Source: Verrucomicrobiota bacterium | GTDB lineage: Bacteria; Verrucomicrobiota; Verrucomicrobiia; Limisphaerales; UBA9464 | DNA: 37,326 nucleotides | Reading direction: 5' to 3' | NCBI GenBank assembly: GCA_947471985.1 | Contig: CANIZL010000068.1 | Span: 1-37,326, forward strand | Part shown: positions 1,822 to 37,326 of the stretch, piece after piece | Numbering within the stretch: the stretch's first letter is position 1 | Layout of the letters: each line of letters begins with the position of its first letter | Position numbers and translations under genes: made by a program | Notes under the pieces: generated by a model | Database searches by the model: none | What the model saw: the letters and a program-made list of their open reading frames with translations, nothing else | Told to the model about the DNA's origin: nothing

Positions 1822-1928
1822 TTCAGGAGTCGCGGGACACACCTCCCGGGATAGGACGCCGTAGTTGGCCAAGGGACCGAATTGTGCCAAGGTTAAAAAA
1901 CCACATCCGCCGGCAGCTGCGGTGATTC
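1811..1928 (+). repeat. 14-bp perfect direct repeat flanking the intergenic region
   Basis: AGCTGCGGTGATTC occurs at 1811-1824, spanning the stop codon of the response regulator, and again at 1915-1928, 54 bp before the giant gene's start. The copies are 104 bp apart in the same orientation. This could be a chance repeat, a small duplication scar or a regulator-binding pair; the sequence alone does not decide. Confidence 0.4.
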
Positions 1929-1963
1929 CTTTTCGGGCTCCGGTTCGAGATTCCGGCACGTGG

Positions 1964-1969
1964 TATGCT
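1964..1969 (+). promoter_or_regulatory. Possible -10 element (TATGCT) for the CotH/LTD gene
   Basis: TATGCT lies 12 nt before the chosen ATG at 1982, which would give a very short or leaderless transcript. No clear -35 hexamer is seen. Confidence 0.25.
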
Positions 1970-1981
1970 AACGTGCGCCTC

Positions 1982-4900: not shown

Positions 4901-7900
4901 GATTTCACGGGGAGCAATCGACCTGGTCAGCCGCTGGCGCATTTCATTGGCAACGTCCTGATCGGGAGCGGCGACGATGGACTCGATCTGGATGGTACGG
5001 ATGCCTGGGTGGAAGGGAACATTTTCCTCCACATTCATCGCAACGGGGCCCCGGATAGTTCCGCCGCGATCTCGGGGGGCAATACCGGCTCCGACACGTC
5101 TGAGGTGACGATCATCAACAACCTGTTTTTCGATTGCGACAACGCTGCCACGGCGAAGCAGGGCAACTTCTACACCCTCATTGGAAATACGATCGTTCAC
5201 ACCACCCGCCAGGGCGGTGTGGATTTCGCCTCCGGCATTGTGAACGTGCGCGACACCACACCGGATCTCACCACGCCGGGCAAGGGATTCTATCTCGAGA
5301 ACAATGTGATCACGGATGCCGAGCAACTGGTACGGAATCCCACCGCCGGCTCGCTGGTGACGTTCGTGAACAACTTGTTGCCGCTGGCGTGGGACGGACC
5401 CGGGACGGGCAATCGAGTGCTGCCGGCCGGGCTGCGGCACCTGCCGGAGATTTCGGAGACGCAGTTTACCAACTGGGAATCGGCCCAGGTCCTGTGGAAT
5501 TGGTTGTCACCGGCGCCGGGCTCGCCCGCCCGCGGCGCCGGAATTGGCGGACGGGATCTGGGGGGTGTGTTGCCCTTGGGCGTCGTCGTAAGTGGCGCGC
5601 CGGTGGGCGTCACCGCCGCTACCGGGGCTACTCTGAGCGTCGGGCCGAACCGGACCGGCGACGGGATTCCCAGCGCGGGATTTCCGCAAGGCAGCGGGTA
5701 TATCGCCTACCGCTGGCGGTTGGACGGCGGCGAGTGGAGCGCCGAAATTCCCATCGCTCAACCCATCGTGCTGGCTGCGCTCACCCCGGGTGAACACTTC
5801 GTGGAGGTTTCCGGCAAACGCGACAGTGGGATGTATCAGGATGATCCGTTGCTGGCGGATGCGGCGGTCGTTTCCCGCAGTGCGACGTGGACGGTGGACC
5901 CGAACTACGTACCTCCCGTGGCCGCGTTGCCCATCCGGCTCAATGAAATCCTGGCGGCGAATCTGACGACGTTCACCAATGCCGGTGCGACGCCCGATTT
6001 GGTGGAGTTGTACAACGCGGGCGCCGCGGCGATCGACCTCGGCGGTGTGTCGCTGAGTGATTCCGCCACTCTCCCGCGCAAGTTTACCTTTGCGCCCGGC
6101 ACAACGCTTGCCGCAGGCGGTTATCTGGTGCTGTTGGCCGACAGTGTCAGCAACGCTCCGGGCCTGCACCTGGGCTTCAGCCTGAAGGCCGCCGGGGATG
6201 AAGTGATCCTCACCGACAGCGTGGCCCGCGGGGCCGGCGTGCTGGATCGGGTGCAATTCGGAATGCAGGTACCCGATCTCTCGCTGGGACGCGGCTATGA
6301 CGGCGAATGGACGCTGGGGCGGCCGACACTGGCTGCCGCCAATCAGCCCGTTGCTTTGGGCAATCCGGCTCAACTGCGCCTTAATGAATGGCTGGCGAGT
6401 GCCATCTTCACGAGCGGAAATGATTTCCTGGAACTGTATAATCGGGACCTGCTGCCGGTGGCCCTCGGTGGCCTGCGGATTTCCGATGCGGCAGCGGCGC
6501 CGGATCGATCCGTCATTGCCCCGCTGAGTTTCATCGCCGGCCGGGGCCACGTGCGATTCATTGCCGACGGGTCACCGGGGCAGGGCGCGGATCATCTGGC
6601 GTTCAAGCTGCCAGCCGACAGTGCGCTGCTGCGTTTGAGCGATGCGGAGAACCGCACCCTGGACCTGATTTCGTACGGTCCGCAGCGCACGGATGTCTCC
6701 CAAGGGCGCTCGCCCGACGGCACCACCCAAGTCATCTCTTTTGGCCAGCCCAGTCCCGGTGGCCCGAATCCGGGGAGTGTCGACGGCAACTGCACGCTGG
6801 CGGTGGAGACCATTCCGCTGTTGTCGCTGGGGTCGTCGTGGCGCTATCAGCAGACCACCAATCTGGACGGAACGGCCTGGAAGACCCCCGGCTACGTCGA
6901 CTCCGCGTGGCCGGTGGGTGCGGGGCTGTTGGGGGTTGAGGACTGCAACTGTCTACCGGTGCCCGGTCTTAAGACCGTACTGACGCTGGGGCGGACCACG
7001 TATTATTTCCGGACGCAATTCACCGTGAATACCAACCTCGCCGGTTTCAACCTGGCACTCACCACAGTGCTGGATGACGGTGCGGTGATTTACCTGAACG
7101 GCGTGGAGTTGGCGCGACCGGGCATGGCCGCGGGAACTGTGAACTACGCGACGTTCAGTTCACGGAATGTCGGCAATGGCAGCACGGAATTCTTCCCGCT
7201 GCCATCCACCCAGTTGGTCGAGGGCGTCAACACGCTGGCTGTCGAGGTCCATCAAACCAGCGCCGGCAGCTCGGATATTGTCTGGGGTGCCGCGCTCGAA
7301 GCAACGCGGACCATTACCAATTGCTCGTCCATTTCGACTTCGCCGGTTTTATTGAACGAGGTTTTCGCCCGGAATCTGACGCGGACGAATCTTGACGGAG
7401 TGGTGGCGGATTGGATCGAACTCTATAACCCCGCCAGTACCAGTGCTTCGCTGGATGGGCTGAGTTTAACCGATAATCCTGGCGAGCCGCGCAAATGGGT
7501 GATGCCGGACGGAGTGGTGCTGGCGCCGGGCAAATTCCTCACGATCGCGTGCGATCCTCTGCAATTGCCCGCGGCGGGCAACACCGGTTTTGGCCTCAAT
7601 GGATCGGGCGGGGCTCTCTACCTGTTTGATCGGTCGGAACGCGGAGGGGCCTTGCTGGACGCGGTTTTCTACGGCGTGCAGGCGGCGGACTTTGCCATTG
7701 GCCGCGTACCGGACGGATCGCCCACGTGGCTGCTGACGGTGCCCACCGCCGGCCAGGTCAATACGGCAGCGGCATTGGGCAACCCCGCACTTTGCCGCAT
7801 CAATGAATGGATGGCCGATCCGGCAACGGGTGATGATTGGTTTGAGGTCTTCAATAGCGATACCCGGCCGATTTCCCTCGGAGGCCTGTTTTTCACCGAC

Positions 7901-8584
7901 AATTTTGAGACGCCGTTTACCTCGCCGGTGTCTCCACTGTCCTTCGTCGGCGTCGGCGCGGATGCGTATCGGCAGTACTTCGCCGACGGCAAACCCGGCA
8001 ATGGGGCCAACCACGTGAATTTCAGTCTCAAGAAATCCGGGGAAGCCATCGGCCTCTATACCGTCGCTGGTCAACTCCTCGATGGGGTGACACTTGGCGG
8101 TCAGCTGGCCGATGTTTCGCAGGGCCGGTTCCCCGATGGCAGTGCCACGATTGTCGCGTTCCCGGGGCGGGCAACACCTCAGGCGCCGAACACCTTTAGT
8201 GTGGTCACGGACGCCGATGGCGATGGACTTCCGGACGTCTGGGAAACGGCCCACGGTCTGGATCCGAAGGACCCCTCCGATGCCGCGAAGGATCCAGATG
8301 GCGATGGCTTAACCAACCTGCAGGAATTTCTGGCCGGCACGAACCCGCGCGATGCGAATAGCGGACTGCGCCTGGATGTGGAGATGGGAGCCTCTGTGCT
8401 CTTGCGTTTCAACGGCGTCACCGGACGCAGCTATACCCTCCAATCACGTGAAGCGTTCGGCTCCGGGGACTGGGCGAATCAGATCGCCATCCCGGTCAGG
8501 AATGCCGATGGCCCGATCGCGGTGACCGACCCGGCGCCACCCTCCGTCGTACGCTTCTACCGGTTGATTACCCCGGCTCGGTAG
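1982..8584 (+). CDS. Giant secreted CotH-kinase / lamin-tail-domain / beta-helix protein
   Basis: 2200 residues. The frame is open further upstream (TTG at 1865), but the ATG at 1982 is chosen because it begins a clear signal peptide (MYCFFQRLLAVWLL..., cleavage after LGAAP). Approximate domain order: lamin-tail domain (25-190); CotH-like domain (about 320-690, with FLVKFPNDRLW, a long insertion, and WSYDMDSIVGGG); right-handed beta-helix (800-1115, with repeated 'NLFFDCDNAA / NTIVHTT' style rungs); two lamin-tail domains (1316-1596); a galactose-binding-like beta-sandwich (1600-1776); two more lamin-tail domains (1784-2069); type-3 calcium repeats DADGDGLPD and DPDGDGLTN (2076-2123); and a C-terminal module (LQSREAFGSGDW...FYRLI). 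CotH proteins of this kind are surface or spore-coat associated, and some members are protein kinases. Whether this one is active was not established. The most likely role is an exported adhesive or structural surface protein. Confidence 0.88.
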   Translation: MYCFFQRLLAVWLLSWSAVTLGAAPLFFSEVMYHPPGTNVLEEWVELRNPNAESVDLSGWQLTQGVRITLPAATRIAGNGYLVIAAHLPTFAAAHPTVTNVVGGWTGVLSDSGETLELQDAAGITQASLTYATEGDWAVRRLSAPDRYGKSGWEWSTAHDGGGSSLELVNEQLPLTEGQNWLSSLTAGGTPGRANSVAASDIAPLITELHHFPPVPRSSEAVTISVRLVDELTSGVSGAVHWRLDTSATFTTLPLVDDGAHGDGLVHDGVFGAVIPAQANNAVIEFYVTTTDGNGHTRTLPNFLPTAEARSPYLVYQVDDAVYSGSQPLYKLVASRTEKAFLETQIWGGSPLSDAEINGTFIAADGVVSSEGTPQVRYQVSYRNRGHGTRTSVPHNFLVKFPNDRLWRHRSALNLNSQSTPGQTLGSAIFRSLGITMAESHLAQVRWNGVNLASPNAPQWGSYAANEVIDGELLKRQIPHDADGNIYRGIRSFDVSITPNLVWHGSEFNGYTNAYFKQNNSLANDWSDFIKLLDVLNNTPAGDYVTRINQSVNVPEWMRYFAINSLLDNQETCLGTGVGDDYILYIPTQDRRAQVWSYDMDSIVGGGTLTTATSTGIFKMADLATVSRLVKTPEFAAEYFRQLQELSTGFFAPAQFDAFIDQWRGQLESTPAIEQLVRNLKAYNASRVAIVRALIPSELTVVSPLPVVSGYPHATTATTSLSGTADAAQTAVVRVNGINATYTAWQGHWTNAAVSLHPGVNRILVEAFNAGGTLIGNRTVDVWYDDASVASKGGTVAGNETWSASGGPYLITSSLTVLGGATLTLEPGTSVYLAAGVNLTIANGGRLLAEGTAQAPIVLSRPPGVATKWGGIVINGAAGSPETRLVHAYIEGNGTTCIHSSGGTLFLDYLNFGSPDQQFVSLDNSSFVVSHCHFPTPTAGFEPLHGTGGVKAGGHGLFLRNFIGAPNGYNDVIDFTGSNRPGQPLAHFIGNVLIGSGDDGLDLDGTDAWVEGNIFLHIHRNGAPDSSAAISGGNTGSDTSEVTIINNLFFDCDNAATAKQGNFYTLIGNTIVHTTRQGGVDFASGIVNVRDTTPDLTTPGKGFYLENNVITDAEQLVRNPTAGSLVTFVNNLLPLAWDGPGTGNRVLPAGLRHLPEISETQFTNWESAQVLWNWLSPAPGSPARGAGIGGRDLGGVLPLGVVVSGAPVGVTAATGATLSVGPNRTGDGIPSAGFPQGSGYIAYRWRLDGGEWSAEIPIAQPIVLAALTPGEHFVEVSGKRDSGMYQDDPLLADAAVVSRSATWTVDPNYVPPVAALPIRLNEILAANLTTFTNAGATPDLVELYNAGAAAIDLGGVSLSDSATLPRKFTFAPGTTLAAGGYLVLLADSVSNAPGLHLGFSLKAAGDEVILTDSVARGAGVLDRVQFGMQVPDLSLGRGYDGEWTLGRPTLAAANQPVALGNPAQLRLNEWLASAIFTSGNDFLELYNRDLLPVALGGLRISDAAAAPDRSVIAPLSFIAGRGHVRFIADGSPGQGADHLAFKLPADSALLRLSDAENRTLDLISYGPQRTDVSQGRSPDGTTQVISFGQPSPGGPNPGSVDGNCTLAVETIPLLSLGSSWRYQQTTNLDGTAWKTPGYVDSAWPVGAGLLGVEDCNCLPVPGLKTVLTLGRTTYYFRTQFTVNTNLAGFNLALTTVLDDGAVIYLNGVELARPGMAAGTVNYATFSSRNVGNGSTEFFPLPSTQLVEGVNTLAVEVHQTSAGSSDIVWGAALEATRTITNCSSISTSPVLLNEVFARNLTRTNLDGVVADWIELYNPASTSASLDGLSLTDNPGEPRKWVMPDGVVLAPGKFLTIACDPLQLPAAGNTGFGLNGSGGALYLFDRSERGGALLDAVFYGVQAADFAIGRVPDGSPTWLLTVPTAGQVNTAAALGNPALCRINEWMADPATGDDWFEVFNSDTRPISLGGLFFTDNFETPFTSPVSPLSFVGVGADAYRQYFADGKPGNGANHVNFSLKKSGEAIGLYTVAGQLLDGVTLGGQLADVSQGRFPDGSATIVAFPGRATPQAPNTFSVVTDADGDGLPDVWETAHGLDPKDPSDAAKDPDGDGLTNLQEFLAGTNPRDANSGLRLDVEMGASVLLRFNGVTGRSYTLQSREAFGSGDWANQIAIPVRNADGPIAVTDPAPPSVVRFYRLITPAR

Positions 8585-26209: not shown

Positions 26210-28213
26210 ATGAGTCAAAACTTCAAACGCGGGCGCAGCACCCTCAGCTTCAAGCCGAAGCAGGGGATCGGCGCCCCCAACCCGCACGGCGCCCGCACGG
26301 CCCGGGCGGAGGCGATCGGCCAGAAGGCGGCGGACGAGAATCTCTTCGACAACCGCCGGCACGAGGCCGAGGTGCGCCGATCGGAAAACCTGGCCGCCGG
26401 CCTGCCCGAGGATGCCAATGATCCCACCGAAGAGGTCCAACGCTCCAAATCGGGGCGCGACCTCAGTTACCGCGCCCCAAGTCCGTCCCACGGGGAAGAG
26501 GGCGGGGGCGACGGCTCGGAGGATCATCCGGCGGAAGACGCGCCGGTCGAACCGCCGCGCCGGCCCAAGGGTCTCATCGAGAAGGCCCGCGCCGCGGTGA
26601 AGGAAGTGGTCAAGAAAGTCCGGCAATTCATCCAGCCGGAACCCAAGATCGTCAAGGAAGTGGTCATCAACGCCGAACCCCTCGAAACCCGGGTGGCGGT
26701 CCTGGAGGATTCCCGCCTGGAGGACTTCACCGTGGAGCGGGCCAGCGACGACCGTCTGGTCGGTTCGATCTTCAAGGGCAAGGTGAAGAACCTGGAGGAC
26801 AATCTGAAGGCCGCGTTCGTCGACATCGGTTTCGAGAAAAACGCCTTCCTGCATTACTGGGATATCGTGCCGAGCAATTTCGACTCGAGCGTGGAATTGG
26901 TGGAGCGCGAGGGCGATCGGCAGAAACAGCGGGCCAAGCCGAAAATCACCCAGAAGGACGTGCCCAAACTGTTCCCGCCGGGCTCGGAAATCATCGTGCA
27001 GGTCACCAAGGGGGCCATTGGCACCAAGGGGCCGCGCGTGACCACGAATCTTTCGCTACCGGGACGCTATCTCGTCCTGCTGCCGAATTCGGATCAGTCC
27101 GGTATCTCCCGTAAGATCGAGCACGGCGAGGAGCGTCAGCGGCTCAAAAAGATCGTCCGCGAATTGACCATTCCCGAGGGCATGGGTGTCATCATCCGTA
27201 CCGCGGGCGAAGGTAAACTCCGTCGTTATTTCGTCCGGGATCTCGCCTTGCTGCTGGAGGAGTGGAAGGAGATCGAATCCCGGATCAAGGCGCAGCCACT
27301 GGCGTCCTGCGTGTTTCAGGAGCCGGATCTCGTCGAGCGTACGGTGCGCGACTTCCTCACGGAAGACGTCAGCCGGATTGTCATCGATGATCCCAAGCAG
27401 TTCGAACGGGTGAAGGGCATGATCTCCAAGATCAGCAGCCGTTCGACCAAGAAGATCCATTTCTATAACGAGGCCCAACCGCTGTTTGATCGGTTCAACA
27501 TCAGCCGGCAGCTCGAGCAGGCCTTCAGCCGCCAGGTGGCGCTGAAGAGCGGTGGTTACCTGGTCATCGATGAAACCGAAGCGCTGGTGGCCATCGACGT
27601 GAACACCGGCAAGCACAAGGGCGGCAAGGACCACGAAAACGCCATCCTCAAGGTCAACATGGAGGCCGCGGAGGAAATCTGCCGCCAACTCCGCCTGCGC
27701 AACATCGGCGGGATCATCGTGCTGGATTTCATCGATATGAAACACCGCCGGGATCAGCAGCAGGTTTACGCGCGGGTGAAGCACCTCCTGAGGCGGGACA
27801 AGTCCAAGACCCACGTGCTGCCGTTGTCGCAGCTGGGCCTGATGGAAATGACCCGGCAGCGGCACACCGAATCCGTGGCCAGCTCGCTCTACGAGGATTG
27901 CCCGCATTGCCGCGGTCGTGGGGTGCTGAAGAGCGCCGAGACGATGAGCATCGAACTGCAGCGCAAGTTGACCTCGATCCTGAAGGGACGTCCGCGCGAC
28001 GAGAACGATTTCCAAGTCAAGGTCACCTGCAATCCCAAGGTCCTGGACCGCCTGCGCACGCGGGATGAAAAGCTGTTGATCGAGCTGGAAAAGAAGTTTT
28101 TCGCGCGGCTGACATTCCGGCCGGATCCGACCTTCCACAACGAGGAATGGACGATCCTGAACGCGCTGACCAACGAGGAATTGGCGCGAAACCAACACCG
28201 CCAAGATTCGTAA
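26210..28213 (+). CDS. rng: Ribonuclease E/G family protein
   Basis: 667 residues. The first 160 or so are a polar, low-complexity extension (Arg/Glu/Pro rich, then a basic KARAAVKEVVKKVRQF helix) not found in RNase G. The catalytic core starts with VINAEPLETRVAVLED. An S1 RNA-binding domain follows (SIFKGKVKNLEDNLKAAFVDIGFEKNAFLH), then the 5'-sensor/RNase H-like part and the DNase I-like active site with D463 (AIDVNTGK) and D506/D509 (DFIDM). The zinc-link is C564-P-H-C567. A small domain completes the protein, with none of the long C-terminal degradosome scaffold of E. coli RNase E. It endonucleolytically cleaves rRNA precursors and mRNA. Either rng or rne could be used as a symbol. A strong terminator follows. 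Confidence 0.93.
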   Translation: MSQNFKRGRSTLSFKPKQGIGAPNPHGARTARAEAIGQKAADENLFDNRRHEAEVRRSENLAAGLPEDANDPTEEVQRSKSGRDLSYRAPSPSHGEEGGGDGSEDHPAEDAPVEPPRRPKGLIEKARAAVKEVVKKVRQFIQPEPKIVKEVVINAEPLETRVAVLEDSRLEDFTVERASDDRLVGSIFKGKVKNLEDNLKAAFVDIGFEKNAFLHYWDIVPSNFDSSVELVEREGDRQKQRAKPKITQKDVPKLFPPGSEIIVQVTKGAIGTKGPRVTTNLSLPGRYLVLLPNSDQSGISRKIEHGEERQRLKKIVRELTIPEGMGVIIRTAGEGKLRRYFVRDLALLLEEWKEIESRIKAQPLASCVFQEPDLVERTVRDFLTEDVSRIVIDDPKQFERVKGMISKISSRSTKKIHFYNEAQPLFDRFNISRQLEQAFSRQVALKSGGYLVIDETEALVAIDVNTGKHKGGKDHENAILKVNMEAAEEICRQLRLRNIGGIIVLDFIDMKHRRDQQQVYARVKHLLRRDKSKTHVLPLSQLGLMEMTRQRHTESVASSLYEDCPHCRGRGVLKSAETMSIELQRKLTSILKGRPRDENDFQVKVTCNPKVLDRLRTRDEKLLIELEKKFFARLTFRPDPTFHNEEWTILNALTNEELARNQHRQDS

Positions 28214-28221
28214 CCTCAACC

Positions 28222-28252
28222 ACGGCCGGCGCTTCCCGCCGGCCGTTTTTTT
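28222..28252 (+). terminator. Rho-independent terminator after the shape/RNase cluster
   Basis: Ten-base-pair GC-rich stem (28222-28231 with 28237-28246), 5-nt loop, then a run of seven T (28246-28252). It begins 9 bp after the RNase stop codon. Confidence 0.92.
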
Positions 28253-28581
28253 CTTCAAAATGGGGGCGAAAAGCGGTTTGGGCGGTCCCAACGACGCGCT
28301 TGTGCGATTTTTCCAAAAATCCGCTTGGCACCACTAGGGGTAGTGTTAATCTGGCTGCCTATCCCCAATGGATAGCGTGATGAGCCTTCCCGGAAATATG
28401 GATTATCACCTTTTTTTGGGGTTTTTGTCGTCAGTTTGACCCGCCTGAGGGGGATGTGGCCAAGTTGAGCGACATGTGCAGAATTCCGCCGCCCGCCAAG
28501 TTTGTTGGTTCCGAAAGTTGTGTAACGGATCGCTGAGTCGTCCACCCGCCAGGGCGAACTGCGATCCCACCGTAAACTCCT
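28253..28581. other. Leader/intergenic region upstream of nrdJ
   Basis: About 330 bp without a credible gene. It holds the NrdR-box-like palindrome at 28331-28346, a second dyad CTATCC-N5-GGATAG at 28359-28375, and a T-rich stretch near 28410-28428. I looked for a cobalamin riboswitch because the downstream enzyme needs B12, and did not find convincing core motifs. Confidence 0.6.
28331..28346. promoter_or_regulatory. NrdR-box-like palindrome upstream of nrdJ
   Basis: CCACTA-GGGG-TAGTGT has the arm sequence and 4-bp centre of the NrdR box (ACACTA-N4-TAGTGT), with one arm base off. NrdR is an ATP/dATP-sensing repressor of ribonucleotide reductase genes and normally binds two boxes about 31 bp apart. 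The neighbouring dyad (28359-28375) is at about 28 bp, with poor sequence match. Position about 240 bp before the start codon implies a long leader or an upstream promoter. Confidence 0.45.
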
Positions 28582-31500
28582 ATGATTGACGCCCGCCATC
28601 CACTGTCCCCGCCTACGGCCGGGAGCGCCCGTTCCGCCCGGGCCACCAAGTCCGTGTCCAAGGCCCGCAAGGGCAATGCCCGTCCTGGGTCCGCCCCAGC
28701 CAAGTCCCCGGTTCGTCGTGGTCTCCCGGTGCCCCGGGTGTTCAGCGACGCCAAGGTCCAGCCCTTCGATCAGATCGAATGGGAGAAGCGCACCGCCGAG
28801 ATCACCGATGACTCCGGCAAAACGATCTTCAAGCAGGAAGGCGTCGAGGTGCCCAAGCACTGGTCGCAACTCGCCACCAAGGTGGTTTGCTCCAAGTATT
28901 TTTACGGCGATCCGGCCAAGGCCGAGCGGGAGTACTCGGTTCGCCAGTTGATTCATCGGGTGACGCGGACGATTGCCGATTGGGGGATCGCGGACGGGTA
29001 TTTTAGCGCGGCGGATGGCGAGGTCTTCTACGAGGAGTTGACGTGGTTGTGCGTCAACCAGTTCGGCGCGTTCAACTCGCCGGTCTGGTTTAACGTCGGG
29101 CTCTACCACCAGTACGGCGTGGGCAAGCACAGCGATCGGGGCAACTGGTTCTTCAATCGGGCCACCGGCCAGACCGAACGGGCGCCCACCCAGTACGAAT
29201 ATCCCCAGGGCAGCGCCTGCTTCATCCAGTCCGTGGAGGACAACATGGAGAGCATCATGGAGCTGGCCTACTCGGAGGCCATGCTGTTCAAGTACGGCTC
29301 CGGCACGGGCACCGACCTGACGCCCATCCGTTCCAGCAAGGAGAAGCTCTCCGGCGGCGGACGCCCGTCCGGCCCCATGAGCTTCCTCAAGGTCTACGAT
29401 CAGGTGGCCAACGTGGTGAAATCCGGCGGCAAGACCCGGCGGGCGGCGAAGATGAACACGATCCGCGATACCCACGGGGACGTCGAGGAGTTCATCACGG
29501 CCAAGCAGAAGGAAGAGAAGAAGGCCTGGGCGCTGATCGAACAGGGCTACGATGGCTCGTTTAACGGCGAAGCCTACGGCTCGGTCATGTACCAGAACGA
29601 GAATCTCTCGGTCCGGGTTTCCGACGAATTCATGCAGGCGGCGGTGGACGGGCGGGAGTGGTGGACCCGGGCCACGGTTTCGGGCAAGCCCCTGGAAAAG
29701 AAGGATGCGTCCCAATTGCTGGATTTGATCGCCGAGGGCACCTGGATCTGCGGCGACCCCGGTTTGCAGTACGACGGCGCCATCCAACGCTGGCACACGT
29801 GCTCCGGCACCGAGCCGATTCACTCCACGAATCCCTGTTCGGAATACGTCTTCCTGAACAATACCGCGTGCAATCTGGCGTCGTTGAACTTGGTGAAGTT
29901 CCAGAAACCCGACGGCAGCTTTGACGTGGAACGTTATAAGGCCGCCGTCCGGATCTACATCACGGCGCAGGAAATCATCGTCGACAACGCCAGCTATCCC
30001 ACGGCGCGGATCGCGGAAAATTCCCACATCTACCGCACCCTCGGTTTGGGCTACGCCAATCTGGGCTCGCTCGTCATGGGCTACGGATTCGCGTACGATT
30101 CCGACGAAGGCCGGGCGCTGGCGGGTGCTTTGACGGCCATCATGACCGGCACGGCGTATGAGCAATCGGCCGAAATGTCGGCGGTCCTGGGTTCCTTCCC
30201 GGGCTACCGGGATTCCCGTTGTGCCGGCGTCGCCCAACCGGCGGCGAAGGACAACGTCGCCGGCATGCGACGCGTCGTGCAGCAACATCGCGATGCGGTC
30301 GAGAGCATCCAACCCAGCCGGGAATTCGCCTACCTCAAGGACGAGGCGCGGACGGCGTGGGATCGGGCGATCGCCCGCGGCCAGGAAGTCGGCTATCGCA
30401 ACGCCCAGGTGACGGTGCTCGCTCCCACGGGAACGATTGCCTTCCTCATGGATTGCGACACCACCGGCGTGGAACCGGACATCGCGCTGGTGAAGTACAA
30501 ACTGCTGGCGGGCGGGGGCATGTTGAAGATCGTGAACCGCACGGTGCCCGAAGCGCTGCGCCGGTTGGGCTATACGCCCGGTCAGATCACCTCGATTGAA
30601 AAGCACATCGCGGATCACGACACCATTGAGGACGTGAAGACCGAAGGTGGCTCGGTGATTCCGAGTGGATTGAAAGCCGAGCATCTCTCGGTGTTCGACT
30701 GCGCCTTCAAGCCCAACAAGGGCGAACGGAGCATCCACTACAAGGCCCATCTCAGCATGATGGCCGCCGCTCAGCCGTTCATCTCCGGAGCGATCTCCAA
30801 GACGGTCAACATGCCGAGCGACGCCACGGCCGCGGAAATCCGCAATGCCTATGTGGATGCGTGGCGATTGGGACTGAAGTGCGTGGCGATCTATCGCGAC
30901 GGCTCCAAGCGTTCCCAGCCGCTGAACACGAAGAAGACCAACGAAGGCGCCGACAAGGCCACGCCGACCCAGACGTTGGAAGCGCAGATTGCCGAATTGC
31001 AGGCTCAGGTGGCAGCGCTCAAGGAACAGGCCGAACAACCGCTGCGGAAGCGGTTGCCCGAAACGCGGATGGCGGTGAACCACAAGTTCGACATCGCCGG
31101 CCACGAAGGATACCTCACGGTGGGTCTGTTCGAGGATCACACGCCCGGTGAGCTGTTTGTCACGATGGCGAAGGAAGGCAGCACCATCGGTGGTCTCATG
31201 GACACCATTGGCGCGCTTACCTCGATGTCCCTCCAATATGGCGTGCCGTTGGAATCCTTGGTCCGCAAGTTCGCGCACCAGCGCTTTGAGCCGAGTGGTT
31301 TCACCAAGAACCCCGACATCCGGCAGGCGTCGTCGATCATCGATTACGTTTTCCGCTGGATGGGCTGCCAGTTCCTGCCGGGCTATCGCCAGAGCACCTC
31401 GCCGGAAGGCGCGCAGGGCGAACTCACGATCCCGGGTCTGCTGGAGGAACTGAAAAAAAAAGTAAACCGGCCGGTGGCGGATCTGGCTTTGGCGGATGAG

Positions 31501-31752
31501 TCCCGGACGGAAATCCTGGTCAAGGCTTCCCTGGCCCCCGGCAACGGCAATGGCGGACACGCGGCGGGCGCTGGCCGGAGCAATGGAAACGGAAACGGAA
31601 ACGGCAATGGTCGCAGCCACGGCTCGGCGTTGACGTCGACGATCCAGAACCAGAAGGATGCGCCGCCGTGTCCGAAATGCGGACACATCGCCGTCCGTAA
31701 CGGGGCGTGCTACAAGTGCCTAAACTGCGGCGAAAGCCTCGGCTGCTCGTAG
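28582..31752 (+). CDS. nrdJ: Vitamin B12-dependent (class II) ribonucleotide reductase
   Basis: 1056 residues. A basic, probably disordered N-terminus (1-50) precedes the catalytic 10-stranded barrel. Key residues are C213 (SACFIQS) and C430 (NTACNLAS) as the likely redox pair, and N417-P-C419-S-E421 as the radical Cys/Glu site. After the barrel comes a short coiled coil (about 795-815, LEAQIAELQAQVAALKEQ). It is followed by a TSCPD domain (GYLTVGLFEDHTPGELFV...), a Gly/Asn linker of NGNGNG repeats, and a C-terminal zinc-ribbon-like tail with CPKC, CYKC, LNC and a terminal GCS. It converts ribonucleotides to deoxyribonucleotides using adenosylcobalamin and needs no oxygen. It appears as a single gene with its own terminator. 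A decayed copy of its 3' end lies at 35628-35791. Confidence 0.96.
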   Translation: MIDARHPLSPPTAGSARSARATKSVSKARKGNARPGSAPAKSPVRRGLPVPRVFSDAKVQPFDQIEWEKRTAEITDDSGKTIFKQEGVEVPKHWSQLATKVVCSKYFYGDPAKAEREYSVRQLIHRVTRTIADWGIADGYFSAADGEVFYEELTWLCVNQFGAFNSPVWFNVGLYHQYGVGKHSDRGNWFFNRATGQTERAPTQYEYPQGSACFIQSVEDNMESIMELAYSEAMLFKYGSGTGTDLTPIRSSKEKLSGGGRPSGPMSFLKVYDQVANVVKSGGKTRRAAKMNTIRDTHGDVEEFITAKQKEEKKAWALIEQGYDGSFNGEAYGSVMYQNENLSVRVSDEFMQAAVDGREWWTRATVSGKPLEKKDASQLLDLIAEGTWICGDPGLQYDGAIQRWHTCSGTEPIHSTNPCSEYVFLNNTACNLASLNLVKFQKPDGSFDVERYKAAVRIYITAQEIIVDNASYPTARIAENSHIYRTLGLGYANLGSLVMGYGFAYDSDEGRALAGALTAIMTGTAYEQSAEMSAVLGSFPGYRDSRCAGVAQPAAKDNVAGMRRVVQQHRDAVESIQPSREFAYLKDEARTAWDRAIARGQEVGYRNAQVTVLAPTGTIAFLMDCDTTGVEPDIALVKYKLLAGGGMLKIVNRTVPEALRRLGYTPGQITSIEKHIADHDTIEDVKTEGGSVIPSGLKAEHLSVFDCAFKPNKGERSIHYKAHLSMMAAAQPFISGAISKTVNMPSDATAAEIRNAYVDAWRLGLKCVAIYRDGSKRSQPLNTKKTNEGADKATPTQTLEAQIAELQAQVAALKEQAEQPLRKRLPETRMAVNHKFDIAGHEGYLTVGLFEDHTPGELFVTMAKEGSTIGGLMDTIGALTSMSLQYGVPLESLVRKFAHQRFEPSGFTKNPDIRQASSIIDYVFRWMGCQFLPGYRQSTSPEGAQGELTIPGLLEELKKKVNRPVADLALADESRTEILVKASLAPGNGNGGHAAGAGRSNGNGNGNGNGRSHGSALTSTIQNQKDAPPCPKCGHIAVRNGACYKCLNCGESLGCS

Positions 31753-31807
31753 TCGCTCAAAGAGTGTGGTGTTTAGGCCGGCGGGAACAGTTCCCGCCGG
31801 CCTTTTT
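31480..31807 (+). repeat. nrdJ 3' end: intact copy of a duplicated segment
   Basis: Two blocks of this region, 31480-31554 and 31736-31807, recur in the same order and orientation at 35628-35701 and 35716-35791. The second block is almost identical from the last nrdJ codons through TAG and on to the terminator stem. Confidence 0.75.
31775..31807 (+). terminator. Rho-independent terminator of nrdJ
   Basis: Perfect 13-bp stem (31775-31787 with 31791-31803), 3-nt loop CAG, followed by T5. It starts 22 bp after the nrdJ stop. Confidence 0.93.
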
Positions 31808-32082
31808 GCGTGTAGGCAAGGGCAGGGTGCCACTACGAGATGGATTCTGATGAAAACCAAAGCCACACGCCTACATGAAGGTCAGCGTTACCAGTAGCGC
31901 TGGTTTTCCAACCGGCGAGTCAGCGGTGTCTGGCGATTAAACGCTCAAGCCACTTTTCAATTTCTCTCACGGCGAAGTTGCCGAAAACGCGAATCGCAAG
32001 CCCTGTACTCCATCCAAAACCGACCCTTGGCGATTTCAGAAATTGAACTCTGACGCACACTTCAATCCGCCGTCCGCTGACG
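31808..32082. other. Intergenic region between nrdJ terminator and the RCC1-like gene
   Basis: About 275 bp, with lower GC than the nrdJ side. A 69-codon minus-strand frame (31920-32129) overlaps the RCC1 gene's 3' end and has no recognisable domain. I see no terminator, RNA gene or clear repeat here. Confidence 0.5.
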
Positions 32083-35000
32083 TCATGGCCGGTGCAAGCG
32101 AAACCAACCTGCGTGATTCGTAGTGTCATGAATCACACGAAAATGGTCCTCCAACAGAATCGGAGCCGCCGGGTGATTACTCCACTGAACCGGTGGCGTG
32201 AGTTCGGTGGTAGATTGGAGTTGAAAATCAGTCCAGTCGGCCGGCCAGGAAATCTCAATCCCCGAACCATTCTGTTTCGCCTCAAGCCCTTCAGGAAATC
32301 CAATCAGAGCCACATAAAAGCCGTGGCCGGCTGCGGTGGTGACAATGGAATCGCGCGCCGCCGCGGGAATAAATGATCGACCGTAACCCGGATACCAACG
32401 CGAATCCGAGGTATTCAGTCCCCATGCAATCAGTGACCCATCGCTGGTATAAGCAAGGCTGTGAAAATGGCCTGCCACGATCCGAACTACGTCGTGGGTG
32501 GCCGATCCCGGCACCCTCGATTGCCCGTAATCGTATTCGGACTCTCCCGCCCCAAGAACCCTTCCATTATTGTCGAGCGCCAGTAGATGAAACAAGCCGG
32601 CGGCGATCGACCGGATACCCGTCGCCGAAGTTATCTGGAGCCGCTGCTTTAAGTCCGCTACATTTCCCCAAATACGCACAGTGCCGTTGGACAGTAAGGC
32701 CGCACTGAACCGGCCACCCGCCGCAATCGCAACCGCCTTGCCGGGCAAATTTGCCGGCACGGTCGCCTGGCCCCACAGATTGTCTCCCCAAGCGACCACG
32801 GTGCCATCCCCCTTCAGCGCTAAAATGTGCGCTGAGCCCACCGAAATCGCGACCACGCCGCTACGCGCGCTCTCCGGAACATCGGATTCCCCATATTGAT
32901 TCGATCCGCCCCAGGCGATCACCGCCCCATTGGTCTTCAACGCCACGCCAAAGGAGGCGGCCGTGCCAATAGCCTGTACCCCAGTCTGCGCCTCCGGGGG
33001 TACTGGCGGATTGTAACCGCCTCCAGGATTCCAGGACACCACCGAAGCGTCCCCGCGCAATGCCAAAATGAAATCCTGCGCCGCCGAAACACCAATCATT
33101 CCGGTACGCAGCGCCGTTGGAACTGGGATTGGGTCCGACGAAGTATCCGTCCAGGCGACCAGGGTGCCGTGCGAGGGTTTTACGCTAAGTACTGCTGGAG
33201 GCGAACTCGTTACCGCGCCTAAATAACTGGAAACCACCACGGAATAGGCGCCGGCATCGCTGGGCAGGACAAACGGGATGTCATAACCAGAATTGACGGC
33301 TCCTGGAAGATCCATGCCGTCTTTTTGCCATTTTGAATTTGCTGGGTATCCCTCGGTTTTAACCTCCAAGTGGACGGATGTTCCAACGACTGCGGTAAGC
33401 CCGGCGGGTTGCTGCCGGATGCGGGGAGCCTCAGCCCTCGCCAGTGTCACCACCGAACCGCCACTCAAAGTCACCGCCAACGAAGCGTTGGGATCCGGAA
33501 CTGAAAGTGGCTTGGCAATATTTCCATCCAGTTCCCAGGCGTAAACTTTACCATCGGCTTTCAAGACTGCCAGGTAGTCGCTTTCTGCGACCATGGCCAC
33601 AACGCCCGATTGAGCTTCGTTTGGCACCTTGAGTCCATCTCGCGTAACGTCTCCCCAACGGGTCAAGGTCCCAGTGTCCGTGAGCGCAAATATTTCGGAG
33701 CCCCCGGCAGCGATGGCGACGATCTCGCCTTGAAAGTCGGGAGCAATTGCCTCGCCGGGCCTCGACACTCCACCCCAATAAATAACGGTACCATCCCGCT
33801 TTAGCGCGATTACCAGCCTCGGACCGTTTGAAATGGCTGCGACACCACTTTTGGCGGCCAGGGGAAGATTCGTTTCGCCGAAGGCATTTCTGCCCCAGAC
33901 GACGACTGCCCCGTCGGATTTGAGCGCGATCGACCGAAACTCGCCAGCTTCCACCGCAACGACACCCTGCAAATCATCCGGGACAAATCCAGGATCTATC
34001 GAGATGCCGGGAACTTTGATTCCCCAGGAAATCACCGAACCATCCGACATTAGTACCAAGGAATGGTAATACTCTTTTACCACATCGATGACGTTGCTTT
34101 TTAGTGTATCTGGTAAGATGCCGGCTTCCGATCCCCAGGCGAATACGGAACCGTCCGCCTTTAGTACCAATTGGCCTTTGGTAATCCCAATCACGTCACT
34201 CTGGGCCGGCAGAGGCACGGATGCATCCGCCTTGCCCGTCCAAATCCGAGCCGACCCACTCGGCGCTGGCGGTACGATCAAAGCCGCCGGATTCGTGCTG
34301 GTGACACTGCCTGCCGAATTAGAGACCACAACATCGTACGATCCAGCTTGCTGGGCACGCACTTTTCCCAAGGGCAGCACCCTTCCGGTCGCACCGAAGA
34401 TCTCCTTGCCGTCCTTCCGCCATTGGTACGCCAAGGGATAGCCACGGGCATGGACACTGAAGTAGCCGTTTGAGCCACGGGGGACGGATTGACTCACGGG
34501 TTCGACTGTGATTTCCGGGGGTGACGGAACTACAATTGCCGCGTTGTGGTACCAACCTGCCGCAATCACAGTAGTACCACCGGCTCCGCCGTTTGGTAAA
34601 GGAAGTTGGCCCACACTGTGGCCCCATTCCACAATTGTGCCATCGGCTTTGAGCGCCATTGAGTGTTCGCTGCCCGCAGCGATGGCCACGACCCCGTTCT
34701 TGGCGCCTTCCGGGACTGTTGATTGGCCGTACCGATTGTCGCCCCAGGCAACTACCGAACCATCCTCCTTGAGTGCCAGGGAATGCGCGGCCCCGGCTGC
34801 TATCGCTTGGACCGAAGTACGGACAGAATTTGGAACGTCCGACTGGCCGTCGGAGTTCAGTCCCCATGCCACCACACCACCCTCCGCAGTCAGCGCAATA
34901 CTATGATTGGCCCCAGCAATGACGGCCCTGATGCCGCCCTTGGCCGTTTCGGGGACGTTGGTTTGTCCGGAGGAATTGGATCCCCACGCAAAAACGGATC

Positions 35001-35448
35001 CGTCGGCCTTCAAAACCAACGAATGTTTGGCCCCGGCAGCCACCCCCATGACTTGATTCTGTGCCGCTGCGGGAATGGTTGCTTGTCCGGAGACATTCCA
35101 GCCCCATCCCACGACGCTGCCATCAGATTTGAGGGCCAAAGTGTGCCGGAAGCCCGCCGCAATGGAGACGACATCGCCATTTGCGCTGAGCGGAACGCTG
35201 GTTTGTTGATAAAGGTCGTCACCCCAAGCAATAACCGAACCATTTCGTCTCAGGGCCACGGTATGGCCCCGGCCGCACGAAATAGCCACAACGTCCCGGA
35301 ACGCTGTGGCCGGGACCCGGGATTCCCCGAAGACATTATCGCCCCATGCCAGGACCGCTTCAGCGGTGGCCCCAATTCCCGAGACCGGTAAGCCAGCGAG
35401 AACTACGGCGCACCAAAGAATGCCACCAAGGCGGGGTAGTATGTGCAT
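32083..35448 (-). CDS. Secreted RCC1-repeat / Ig-like protein with Verrucomicrobia-type C-terminal module
   Basis: 1121 residues from the ATG at 35448, preferred over the one at 35478 because it opens a signal peptide (MHILPRLGGILWCAVVLAGL). Three blocks of RCC1-type propeller repeats (about 30-305, 400-670, 760-1045) carry the recurring pattern HSLALKxDGSVVAWGxNxxGQxxVP. They are separated by two Ig-like domains (about 308-395 with QWRKDGKEI, and 674-755 with KWQKDGMDL, each ending AGSYxVVVS or AGAYSVVVS). The end is the module FQLQSTTELTPPVQW...GWFRLH. Exported RCC1/Ig proteins are probably surface or matrix proteins; no enzyme motif is seen. The gene is less GC-rich than the housekeeping block and opposes it in strand, consistent with acquisition. 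Confidence 0.85.
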   Translation of the reverse strand: MHILPRLGGILWCAVVLAGLPVSGIGATAEAVLAWGDNVFGESRVPATAFRDVVAISCGRGHTVALRRNGSVIAWGDDLYQQTSVPLSANGDVVSIAAGFRHTLALKSDGSVVGWGWNVSGQATIPAAAQNQVMGVAAGAKHSLVLKADGSVFAWGSNSSGQTNVPETAKGGIRAVIAGANHSIALTAEGGVVAWGLNSDGQSDVPNSVRTSVQAIAAGAAHSLALKEDGSVVAWGDNRYGQSTVPEGAKNGVVAIAAGSEHSMALKADGTIVEWGHSVGQLPLPNGGAGGTTVIAAGWYHNAAIVVPSPPEITVEPVSQSVPRGSNGYFSVHARGYPLAYQWRKDGKEIFGATGRVLPLGKVRAQQAGSYDVVVSNSAGSVTSTNPAALIVPPAPSGSARIWTGKADASVPLPAQSDVIGITKGQLVLKADGSVFAWGSEAGILPDTLKSNVIDVVKEYYHSLVLMSDGSVISWGIKVPGISIDPGFVPDDLQGVVAVEAGEFRSIALKSDGAVVVWGRNAFGETNLPLAAKSGVAAISNGPRLVIALKRDGTVIYWGGVSRPGEAIAPDFQGEIVAIAAGGSEIFALTDTGTLTRWGDVTRDGLKVPNEAQSGVVAMVAESDYLAVLKADGKVYAWELDGNIAKPLSVPDPNASLAVTLSGGSVVTLARAEAPRIRQQPAGLTAVVGTSVHLEVKTEGYPANSKWQKDGMDLPGAVNSGYDIPFVLPSDAGAYSVVVSSYLGAVTSSPPAVLSVKPSHGTLVAWTDTSSDPIPVPTALRTGMIGVSAAQDFILALRGDASVVSWNPGGGYNPPVPPEAQTGVQAIGTAASFGVALKTNGAVIAWGGSNQYGESDVPESARSGVVAISVGSAHILALKGDGTVVAWGDNLWGQATVPANLPGKAVAIAAGGRFSAALLSNGTVRIWGNVADLKQRLQITSATGIRSIAAGLFHLLALDNNGRVLGAGESEYDYGQSRVPGSATHDVVRIVAGHFHSLAYTSDGSLIAWGLNTSDSRWYPGYGRSFIPAAARDSIVTTAAGHGFYVALIGFPEGLEAKQNGSGIEISWPADWTDFQLQSTTELTPPVQWSNHPAAPILLEDHFRVIHDTTNHAGWFRLHRP

Positions 35449-35627
35449 GCCGGGTTGATGGGTCACCGGAAATTCCAAGTCACGCAGCCAAAATGCCCCG
35501 GAGTTTATCCTCGATTGGATGGCACGGTTCCGTGGACATTTTGCAGGATTGATTTTCGACTAGAGACCTCGCCCTCCCGCTTGTAAAGGCGATTCGTTCA
35601 AGCCACCAAAAGTCGGCCTAAAGTGCA

Positions 35628-35791
35628 GATGCTCTTGGCGGGTGAGTCGCGGACTGAAATCCTCGGCAACCTTCCCTCGCCCCGGGGCAAAGGAAACGGC
35701 CAACCTGCGGCGTATGCCTCGGCTGCTCGTAGTCGCACAAAGAGTGTGGTGTTTAGGCCGGCAAGAACAGGGAGTTCCCGCCGGCTTTTTT
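35628..35791 (+). pseudogene. Decayed duplicate of the nrdJ 3' end with its terminator
   Basis: 35628-35701 translates as LLAGESRTEILGNLPSP, resembling nrdJ LALADESRTEILVKASL. After an internal loss of about 165 bp (relative to nrdJ 31555-31735), 35716-35791 repeats the nrdJ end, stop region and terminator almost base for base. The loss shifts the frame, so the nrdJ stop is no longer in phase. The left arm of the duplicated terminator stem has changed (GGCGGGAAC to GGCAAGAAC), leaving an internal 2x2 mismatch, followed by T6. Confidence 0.7.
35757..35791 (+). terminator. Degenerate terminator in the nrdJ-tail copy
   Basis: Stem GCCGGC (35757-35762) with GCCGGC (35780-35785), an inner stem GAAC/GTTC, a mismatch between them, and T6. 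No plus-strand gene now reads into it. Confidence 0.5.
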
Positions 35792-35966
35792 CCATGTGCT
35801 CAAAGGAAGGGAACTGAATAGCGATCAGCGACCCGAAGGACTCTGGAAACCGGCCTACCGACCGGAAAGTCGGCACAGGCAAACACTCAACGGCCCGGCA
35901 CTGGTGACGTGTGGGTTGCAACCGGAACGCGAGGGCCAAGTCCGCCGGAGCGCATGGGCGTCGTGG

Positions 35967-36479
35967 TCATTTGGAATTCTTGCGCGCTCCCTCATACATT
36001 TTGATCGCGACACTTTTTGTGAAATCGCGCTGACGCCACTCGTCGTAAAGCGGATATGGCGCGAATTCCGACTTGTGTTCCTCCCACCAGAAATACAGGT
36101 CGCCCGCAAAATATCTCTGCTTGCCGTCCTTGTCGGACGTGAAGATGGGAACCGCGTCACCGACGCGCTGGTGAAATGCCTGACCCAATTCCGAGTCGAG
36201 AGGAATGAAACCACCGACCTGAACAACCGCGTAAAACACAAACCGGCCGGGAGCGCGATTGTCTGATTTCCTGAGGGCGATGGTCAGTTCGGCGTCGAAA
36301 CGAGCCTCATTCTTTTTGATGGTTGGAAGCAGATTGTTTTTGCCTTGCGCGAAGCTGTCCCAATTACTGAGGTAGCGGTCTATAAAGGTGAAGTCACCGC
36401 TGGGCTTCTTGATGCATCCACCGAGTTGGAGCGAGACTAGTACCAGGAAAAGTGTGCGAATGGCTTGAAGTGGTTTCAT
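35967..36479 (-). CDS. Small lipoprotein of unknown function
   Basis: 170 residues from the ATG at 36479, chosen because it begins a lipoprotein signal (MKPLQAIRTLFLVLVSLQLGGC) with lipobox LGGC, so Cys22 would be lipidated. The open frame continues upstream to 36668 but overlaps the next gene and has no merit there. The mature part is charged and aromatic (FTFIDRYLSNWDSF, GDLYFWWEEHKSEFAPYPLYDEWRQRDF). I recognise no domain. It is downstream of and in the same strand as the AHSA1-like gene with a 134-bp gap, so they may or may not share a transcript. Confidence 0.65.
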   Translation of the reverse strand: MKPLQAIRTLFLVLVSLQLGGCIKKPSGDFTFIDRYLSNWDSFAQGKNNLLPTIKKNEARFDAELTIALRKSDNRAPGRFVFYAVVQVGGFIPLDSELGQAFHQRVGDAVPIFTSDKDGKQRYFAGDLYFWWEEHKSEFAPYPLYDEWRQRDFTKSVAIKMYEGARKNSK

Positions 36480-36613
36480 GGATTTTCGGAGGTGCGTAAC
36501 GAAGAAATAAACCTTTGCTGTCGAGCGCAGGCGAGGGCGGCGGTCGACGCGATGTTTTTTGGTCAGGATCCGCTGGAGCAGAGAACAGGACCACAGGATT
36601 GTGGTTCGAAGGA

Positions 36614-37024
36614 TCACTCCGGCCGTGCTGCCACATGCCGGGCGAAGCGATCGAGAATCGCCTGCCATCCCTGCCGCTGCTGCTCGAAGGGATGCGTGTT
36701 CTCCGCGTCAAATGTCTCCCGAACTACGACTCCCGCGTCACTGCGAACGAACTCGATGAGCGCAGTACGGCCGCCGAAGGTCATTTCAATTAGCTCGAGG
36801 GGGACGAGCTGGGTGTAAGTCCCGGCGAAGTCGAAGCCAAAGCTGCCGTCCTTGGCCTCCATGCGCGAGGAGAACGCGCCGCCGACTCGCAAATCAACCG
36901 CAGCGGCGGTGGTGTGCCAGTCATCGGATGCGGCGTTCCACTGCTTGATGTCATCCGGCGTAGTCCAGGCACGCCACACCTCTTCGATGGGGGCATTGAC
37001 CGTGGTCTCAACTGTGATTTTCAT
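36614..37024 (-). CDS. AHSA1/SRPBCC-family (START-like) protein
   Basis: 136 residues from the ATG at 37024, which begins at the family's usual first strand (MKITVETTVNAPIEEVWRAWTTP); the frame extends 16 codons further up without support. Family signs are the WRAWTTPDDIKQWN helix, VGGAFSSRM, the FDFAGTYTQLVPLELIEMTF strand pair, and the C-terminal amphipathic helix HPFEQQRQGWQAILDRFARHV. These proteins have a hydrophobic-cavity helix-grip fold. Most bacterial members have no assigned function, and some bind small ligands or occur with ArsR regulators, none of which is seen here. A weak AAGAG ribosome-binding-like sequence lies 8 nt upstream of the start. Confidence 0.88.
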   Translation of the reverse strand: MKITVETTVNAPIEEVWRAWTTPDDIKQWNAASDDWHTTAAAVDLRVGGAFSSRMEAKDGSFGFDFAGTYTQLVPLELIEMTFGGRTALIEFVRSDAGVVVRETFDAENTHPFEQQRQGWQAILDRFARHVAARPE

Positions 37025-37279
37025 ATTTTGTACTCTTTTTAGGGTGGGGGTGTGAACTGGCCATATCACCAATGCACAGTAAACTGGCCGACCCGTCGCA
37101 AACTCAGAATCACACCCGCGGCGCCCGGTTTGCTTCGCATTCCCTCCGTTTCTGAGTTCGTGACCTCAAAGTAAAGGTTCATTACGCTACGGGTTGAAGT
37201 GGGAGGGAATGGTGGAGGGAGCCCGTAGGGCGACCGGAACCATTCCCTCCCACGGGCGGTTCAAAACCGTAACAAAAAA
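37025..37279. other. Intergenic region with repeat at the right edge
   Basis: About 255 bp. It contains the 15-bp inverted repeat at 37199-37253 and a small dyad CGGTT-CAA-AACCG at 37257-37269. Nothing else is recognised. Confidence 0.5.
37199..37253. repeat. Perfect 15-bp inverted repeat with 25-bp loop
   Basis: GTGGGAGGGAATGGT (37199-37213) and its exact reverse complement (37239-37253) enclose a G-rich loop. There is no T-run after either arm, so it is not a standard terminator. It resembles a dispersed palindromic (REP-like) unit or an element end. Confidence 0.65.
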
Positions 37280-37326
37280 ATGACCCGCACCAACTCCACC
37301 GAAACTCCCCCAAAGAGCGCCGGCAA
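37280..37326 (+). CDS. Possible start of a gene cut by the window edge
   Basis: An ATG after a run of A opens a frame (MTRTNSTETPPKSAG...) that continues to the edge. It is only 15 codons long, polar at the N-terminus, and not identifiable. A transposase or unknown cytoplasmic protein is possible. Confidence 0.3.
   Translation, partial: MTRTNSTETPPKSAG

What the first reader, a model, noticed from the sequence alone, without database searches (positions are those of the whole stretch)
31480..35791. RCC1-type surface gene bracketed by intact nrdJ and a decayed second copy of the nrdJ 3' end and terminator
The last nrdJ codons, stop and terminator (31736-31807) recur nearly identically at 35716-35791. 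An upstream nrdJ stretch (31480-31554) is echoed at 35628-35701 in the same order. The two direct copies bracket about 3.8 kb of lower-GC DNA carrying one opposite-strand gene. This is the footprint expected if a DNA segment entered at the nrdJ 3' end by recombination that duplicated the site, or if a paralogous nrdJ tail was left behind. The second copy has an internal loss and a weakened terminator stem, so it is the relic.
Basis: partly seen in the sequence, partly recalled or inferred. Interest (0 to 1): 0.62.

Follow-up and report, generated by a model that had tools for sequence, protein, structure and literature searches.

The report
Decayed second nrdJ gene end
In an uncultured bacterium, the end of a DNA-building enzyme gene was copied once, and a surface-protein gene now lies between the working end and its decaying copy: a real but ordinary scar of past DNA rearrangement.

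Summary
A 371-bp stretch (31457-31827: last 296 nt of nrdJ with stop, plus terminator) recurs in order at 35607-35811 as 205 bp, with 167 nt lost inside. Nothing else like it was found in the 6.38-Mb draft genome. The copy's linker and 3' untranslated parts match no nrdJ region in 43 family sequences below E 0.1, only this genome's own, so it comes from this lineage's nrdJ or a close congener's. It has lost residues that nrdJ keeps, so it is the relic. It brackets one secreted RCC1/Ig-type gene. None of 22 other RCC1/Ig frames examined is bracketed this way, and no integrase was found in the insert. Lower GC is no marker, because the right flank is as low. The best reading is an insertion-with-duplication at the nrdJ 3' end, but this is not proven: no same-genus genome is held, so no empty site can be shown. 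In a parallel case (aminotransferase gene end after an ankyrin gene), a sister genome has the gene without the second end, so gene arrival and end duplication may be separate events. Ordinary; low interest.

The parts
28582..31752 (+). intact nrdJ, vitamin B12-dependent (class II) ribonucleotide reductase, 1056 aa
   Evidence: Pfam PF02867, PF08471, PF12637; NCBIfam NF005122 1290.9 bits vs cutoff 859
31457..31554 (+). copy 1, block 1: nrdJ linker stretch
   Evidence: alignment to 35607-35701, 70 of 93 aligned bases
31555..31721 (+). 167-nt stretch of nrdJ (Gly-Asn linker and most of the Cys-rich tail) missing from copy 2
   Evidence: lies between the two aligned blocks
31722..31827 (+). copy 1, block 2: last nrdJ codons, stop and intrinsic terminator
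   Evidence: alignment to 35702-35811, 92 of 106 aligned bases; hairpin -32.9 kcal/mol
31864..31935 (+). copy of a dispersed intergenic repeat between the nrdJ terminator and the RCC1 gene
   Evidence: best match elsewhere in own genome 84% over 72 nt on C4; 16 other places below E 1e-3
32083..35448 (-). RCC1-repeat and Ig-domain gene with signal-peptide-like N-terminus (by eye), 1121 aa from ATG at 35448 (1131 aa from TTG at 35478)
   Evidence: Pfam RCC1_2, WD40_RLD, Ig_3; translation
35607..35701 (+). copy 2, block 1: decayed nrdJ linker
35702..35811 (+). copy 2, block 2: decayed last codons, stop and terminator
   Evidence: hairpin -24.0 kcal/mol
35967..36668 (-). 233-aa ORF right of copy 2, no Pfam or NCBIfam match; matched only in its own genome of 38 searched
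36614..37072 (-). AHSA1-domain protein gene
   Evidence: Pfam PF08327 1.3e-22

Best explanation
DNA that carried the RCC1/Ig gene together with an nrdJ 3' end joined the chromosome by recombination at the nrdJ 3' end. The event may have been a single crossover of a circular molecule, or a homologous crossover at one side with an illegitimate join at the other. Two copies of the last ~296 coding bases plus terminator were left around the insert. Selection kept the copy attached to nrdJ. The other decayed by substitutions, small indels and a 167-nt internal deletion. Shown: the two copies, their order, the decay and the single bracketed gene. Inferred: that gene and duplicate arrived together, and the kind of recombination.
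For: Direct repeats bracket one long gene, with no likeness detected outside them. Copy 2 block 1 has no match at E 1 or better in 43 family nrdJ loci, and its 3' untranslated part none below 0.1, while both match this genome's nrdJ. Copy 2 departs from residues kept in copy 1 and in most printed relatives (ESLGCS reads VCLGCS, ILVK reads ILGN; window sequence, output cut). Of 38 genomes (28 with any match), only G000 has a real second end: G021's second match is a 119-nt contig-end overlap, and G010's is 29 nt. PMC3240628 (abstract start and passages) reports that single crossovers between a circular molecule carrying a lacZ end and the chromosome left duplications of 109-950 bp of that end, the same footprint.
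Against: No empty site or donor was found, and foreign origin of the copy is unproven. In the parallel aminotransferase-ankyrin case, sister genome G019 has the gene but no second end in the 2.5 kb up to its contig end, so end duplication may be independent of gene arrival. A test for a foreign nrdJ tail was inconclusive: the last window is the most g3-like of 24, but the tail tree places it on a long branch of its own. Copy 1 block 1 is as close to one relative's nrdJ (G007, 75.7% over 74 nt) as to copy 2, so block 1 alone says little about age.
Confidence: 0.45

Rival explanations
1. Two separate events. A local duplication of the nrdJ end (or of more of nrdJ) happened first or later, and the RCC1/Ig gene entered independently. 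Deletion trimmed the duplicate to its present 205 bp.
For: Second gene ends occur elsewhere: in L132 the last 110 nt of nrdJ recur 87 nt after the stop; in L087 117 nt of a gene end recur at 95.7%. In the aminotransferase case the gene and the second end are uncoupled between sister genomes. Block 1 (70 of 93) and the core 31722-31783 (57 of 62) differ in divergence, Fisher p 0.01 with a boundary chosen after seeing the alignment (whole blocks: p 0.045), so the copy may have a mixed history.
Against: What follows copy 2 is not like what follows copy 1, as a plain recent tandem duplication would leave. No second full C-terminal nrdJ match in the 50 family genomes; short extra matches in G014, G021, G048 and split hits in others look like contig breaks or linker gaps.
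Confidence: 0.37
2. Remnant of a site-specific element that integrates at the nrdJ 3' end, brings its own 3' end for nrdJ and displaces the host's, in the manner of phage 21 and e14 at icd (recalled, not from a call).
For: The displaced-end anatomy fits, and a better-conserved core is flanked by more divergent sides.
Against: No integrase: of the ORFs of 100 aa or more between the copies, only the RCC1 frame has Pfam matches; the 7 ORFs overlapping it have none. None of 77 other nrdJ loci with at least 4 kb downstream shows a comparable insert; L132 holds only 87 nt between its two ends. A 25-nt piece of the repeat has no exact match in the viral collection.
Confidence: 0.08
3. Assembly artefact: a metagenome contig joined wrongly at the repeat, or a strain mixture.
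For: The window is a whole contig of a 180-contig draft assembly.
Against: The blocks are only 75-87% alike and the longest identical run is 25 nt (alignment), far below the 119-nt overlap seen between contig ends of another draft genome. The internal deletion is not an assembly pattern.
Confidence: 0.05

Closest known systems
Single-crossover (Campbell-type) integration leaving a gene-end duplication, as at lacZ in E. coli (PMC3240628, abstract start and passages)
   Same: A gene's 3' end is present twice, bracketing added DNA; the duplicate is a few hundred bp long
   Different: Natural and decayed here; donor and recombination route not seen
Homology-facilitated illegitimate recombination (PMC3240628, abstract start and passages)
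   Same: Homology at one side only would explain why the DNA outside the copies is unlike
   Different: In that paper HFIR was predicted to delete, not duplicate, part of the gene
Transformation-made tandem duplications (PMC3784515, abstract excerpts and passages)
   Same: Recombination through repeats leaves duplicated DNA
   Different: The one described in the passages seen is 107.4 kb long, between pre-existing repeats; here only a gene end is doubled
Phage 21/e14 integration in icd (recalled)
   Same: Element-borne 3' end and displaced host 3' end
   Different: No integrase found here

Membership tests
Single-crossover insertion-duplication | direct copies of the homologous stretch at both ends of the insert | tested here: met
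Single-crossover insertion-duplication | uninterrupted empty site in a relative | not testable with these tools
   no second genome of the genus among the 50 of the family; downstream genes differ between genera
Single-crossover insertion-duplication | gene and second copy always occur together | tested here: inconclusive
   only this genome was seen with either at nrdJ; in the aminotransferase parallel they are uncoupled
Site-specific integrative element at a gene 3' end | integrase gene in the insert | tested here: not met
   RCC1 frame and the 7 ORFs of 100 aa or more overlapping it searched against Pfam; no integrase
Site-specific integrative element at a gene 3' end | same site used in relatives | tested here: not met
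   no second end around foreign genes in 77 other loci with at least 4 kb downstream; L132 has a repeated end with only 87 nt between; short weak hits in L086, L128, L144 not followed
Dispersed repeat | copies elsewhere in the genome | tested here: not met
   beside the nrdJ end no match of 35440-35830 below E 0.3 in the draft genome
RCC1/Ig gene mobilised with its neighbour's end as a rule | other RCC1/Ig genes of the genome bracketed by direct repeats | tested here: not met
   0 of 22 other frames, 8 of them near a stretch or contig edge

The most novel reading that the evidence does not exclude
The nrdJ 3' end is a recurrent landing site for elements that supply a replacement nrdJ tail, here stripped down to one surface-protein gene; the repeated end in an Acidobacteriaceae nrdJ (L132) would be a second trace of such traffic.
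Probability: 0.05. Interest if true: 0.45.

Novelty: new member of a known kind. Interest (0 to 1): 0.14.

Why it matters
It is a readable scar of how accessory surface genes may come to lie beside core genes in these bacteria, and a reminder that a second gene end can mark a past recombination event without any mobile-element gene. It does not change any general picture.

Tried and rejected
Dispersed repeat: rejected. Low GC as a sign of foreign DNA: rejected, since right flank GC is 0.567 vs 0.577 in the insert. RNA element: no Rfam family at gathering threshold in 28000-37326. tRNA att site: no tRNA in the window. RCC1 genes as mobile units: 0 of 22 other frames bracketed (repeats overlapping another RCC1 frame were dropped before the count). 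Replacement of the nrdJ tail by a foreign one: the last 42-codon window is the most g3-like of 24 (difference 0.091, others mean -0.003, sd 0.023), but the 141-nt tail tree puts it on a long branch of its own, as the body tree does, so this is inconclusive. G021 as a second case: its second match is a 119-nt overlap of two contig ends. G199, another family of the order: its match runs past the stop, but there it is only a generic terminator hairpin (local score 15). nrdJ as a special hot spot: 1 of 77 other nrdJ loci (L132) against 2 such cases (L153, L087) among 875 gene ends tested of all kinds, some nrdJ among them, after setting aside two tandem-paralogue hits (L172, L191) and L132 itself; no clear enrichment. 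The window's own nrdJ was not among the 875 because my ORF filter kept the longer antisense frame. Weak hits in L086, L128 and L144 were not looked into. An earlier wording of mine, that linkers in other genera are unrelated, was dropped: the first 74 nt of copy 1 block 1 are 75.7% alike in G007.

Full report
What was checked. The window is a whole contig (C68) of a 6.38-Mb draft genome in 180 contigs. That the family belongs to the Pedosphaera-like Verrucomicrobiota is my inference from this.

The repeat. The repeat finder gives 31722-31790/35702-35770 at 91% and 31789-31827/35773-35811 at 79%. Aligned with gaps, block 2 is 92 of 106 bases identical with one 4-nt gap. Block 1 (31457-31554/35607-35701) is 70 of 93 with 7 gap columns. 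Block 1 alone scores 38.9; the best of 1000 shuffles is 18.2 and the best of 3000 first-order Markov sequences is 20.6. So the second copy is a shortened nrdJ end with 167 nt lost inside. Outside the copies no likeness was found: flank scores 12.6 and 10.2, null maxima 19.1 and 18.9 in 100 trials each.

Which copy is the relic. The intact gene is class II ribonucleotide reductase. In the relatives whose ends were printed (output cut in the middle), the last residues of family members are mostly CGESLGCS and the linker often has LVK. Copy 1 keeps these; copy 2 does not. All three coding differences in block 2 fall at first or second codon positions. In block 1, 12 of 23 fall at third positions, which fits a selected copy 1 and an unselected copy 2, though I made no test of it. 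The copy 2 hairpin is weaker on the + strand, -24.0 against -32.9 kcal/mol.

Origin of copy 2. Beside the nrdJ end, 35440-35830 has no match below E 0.3 in the draft genome. Other genomes share the coding tail (73-91% DNA identity in the listed matches; 120 of 320 genomes at E 1e-20, G000 included). Against 43 family nrdJ sequences (23 gene regions and 20 longer loci, some genomes in both), copy 2 block 1 has no match at E 1 or better; the two 3' untranslated stretches have none below 0.1. So the copy derives from this lineage or a close congener. Copy 1 block 1 does match relatives, best 75.7% over 74 nt in G007. In one search one genome of another family, G199, matches past the stop codon; this is a generic GC-rich terminator hairpin. 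The core 31722-31783 is 57 of 62 identical against 70 of 93 in block 1 (Fisher p 0.01, boundary chosen after the fact; whole blocks p 0.045). The cause is unknown; gene conversion between the copies or a mixed origin would do it.

The bracketed gene. One long gene lies between the copies: an opposite-strand, signal-peptide-like protein with RCC1 repeats and Ig domains. The 7 other ORFs of 100 aa or more between the copies overlap it and have no Pfam match. The genome holds many relatives of it (87 matching stretches, itself included), the best other at 50% identity. Relatives in other family genomes at E 1e-60 or better are 37-53% identical and lie on contigs other than those of nrdJ (14 candidates scored per genome at most). 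GC between the copies is 0.577, nrdJ 0.625, right flank 0.567.

Relatives. Of 38 genomes, 28 had any match and only G000 a real second end; G021's is a 119-nt overlap of two contig ends, and G010's second match is 29 nt. In 45 nrdJ loci, many with short downstream DNA, no RCC1 relative (E below 1e-15), 35967-36668 protein or AHSA1 protein (E 1e-4) was seen. In one search, 101 loci including the window were examined (L073 and L167 appear to be the same contig); 78 had at least 4 kb downstream, 23 were left out. Beside the window, one (L132, Acidobacteriaceae) repeats its last 110 coding bases 87 nt after the stop, with the protein tail intact. L077 has an Ig-repeat protein about 2.4 kb after nrdJ and no second end. 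L086, L128 and L144 gave short weak hits not followed. Genes after nrdJ are shared within groups of one genus but hardly between genera in the 35 loci compared, and no second genome of the window's own genus is held in the family set. So no empty site can be shown.

How common the footprint is. In 159 stretches, 875 frames of at least 300 codons with 4 kb downstream were tested for a second copy of their 3' end within 10 kb. There were 5 raw hits, of which L172 and L191 look like tandem paralogues and L132 is nrdJ again. L087 (117 nt, 95.7%) and L153 (57 nt, 84%) remain. L153 looks like our case: an intact class IV aminotransferase gene (probably ilvE, by eye), an ankyrin gene, then a decayed second aminotransferase gene end, with a Mutator-type transposase gene beyond. 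Sister genome G019 has the aminotransferase and ankyrin genes (ankyrin 90% identical) but no second end in the 2.5 kb up to its contig end; in the stretches fetched from G005, G039, G007, G012 and G041 neither the ankyrin gene nor a second end was found. There, gene and end duplication are uncoupled, or G019 lost the second end. This is evidence against taking one event for granted at nrdJ.

Verdict. The best single reading is insertion of DNA with a gene-end duplication by homologous or half-homologous recombination, as reported for lacZ in E. coli, where single crossovers left duplications of 109-950 bp (PMC3240628, passages). Two separate events are nearly as likely. A site-specific element is unlikely: no integrase and no recurrent site were found.

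Noticed in passing
window 31864-31935; L220:9426-12352: A dispersed intergenic repeat (core GCTGGTTTTCCAACCGGCGAGTC) lies between the nrdJ terminator and the RCC1 gene; 16 other places in the genome below E 1e-3, several on C13.
   Followed up: partly
L183:3843-3946 and 4927-5030; L241:3759, 4675, 8260; L244:19165 and 19370: Other intergenic or short repeat families in the same genome, some on either side of a gene.
   Followed up: no
L132:10857-11163: Acidobacteriaceae nrdJ with its last 110 coding bases repeated 87 nt after the stop, protein tail intact.
   Followed up: partly
L153, reverse strand 4286-7786 (locus length 14001): Class IV aminotransferase gene, ankyrin-repeat gene, decayed second aminotransferase gene end and a Mutator-type transposase gene in G022. 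Sister genome G019 lacks the second end in the DNA held.
   Followed up: partly
L087:996-1112 and 2175-2291: A gene end of 117 nt repeated at 95.7% identity about 1.06 kb further on.
   Followed up: no
window 35967-36668: 233-aa ORF without Pfam or NCBIfam match, matched in 1 of 38 genomes searched, its own.
   Followed up: partly
window 1865-8584: 2239-aa frame with a CotH kinase domain and lamin-tail domains.
   Followed up: no
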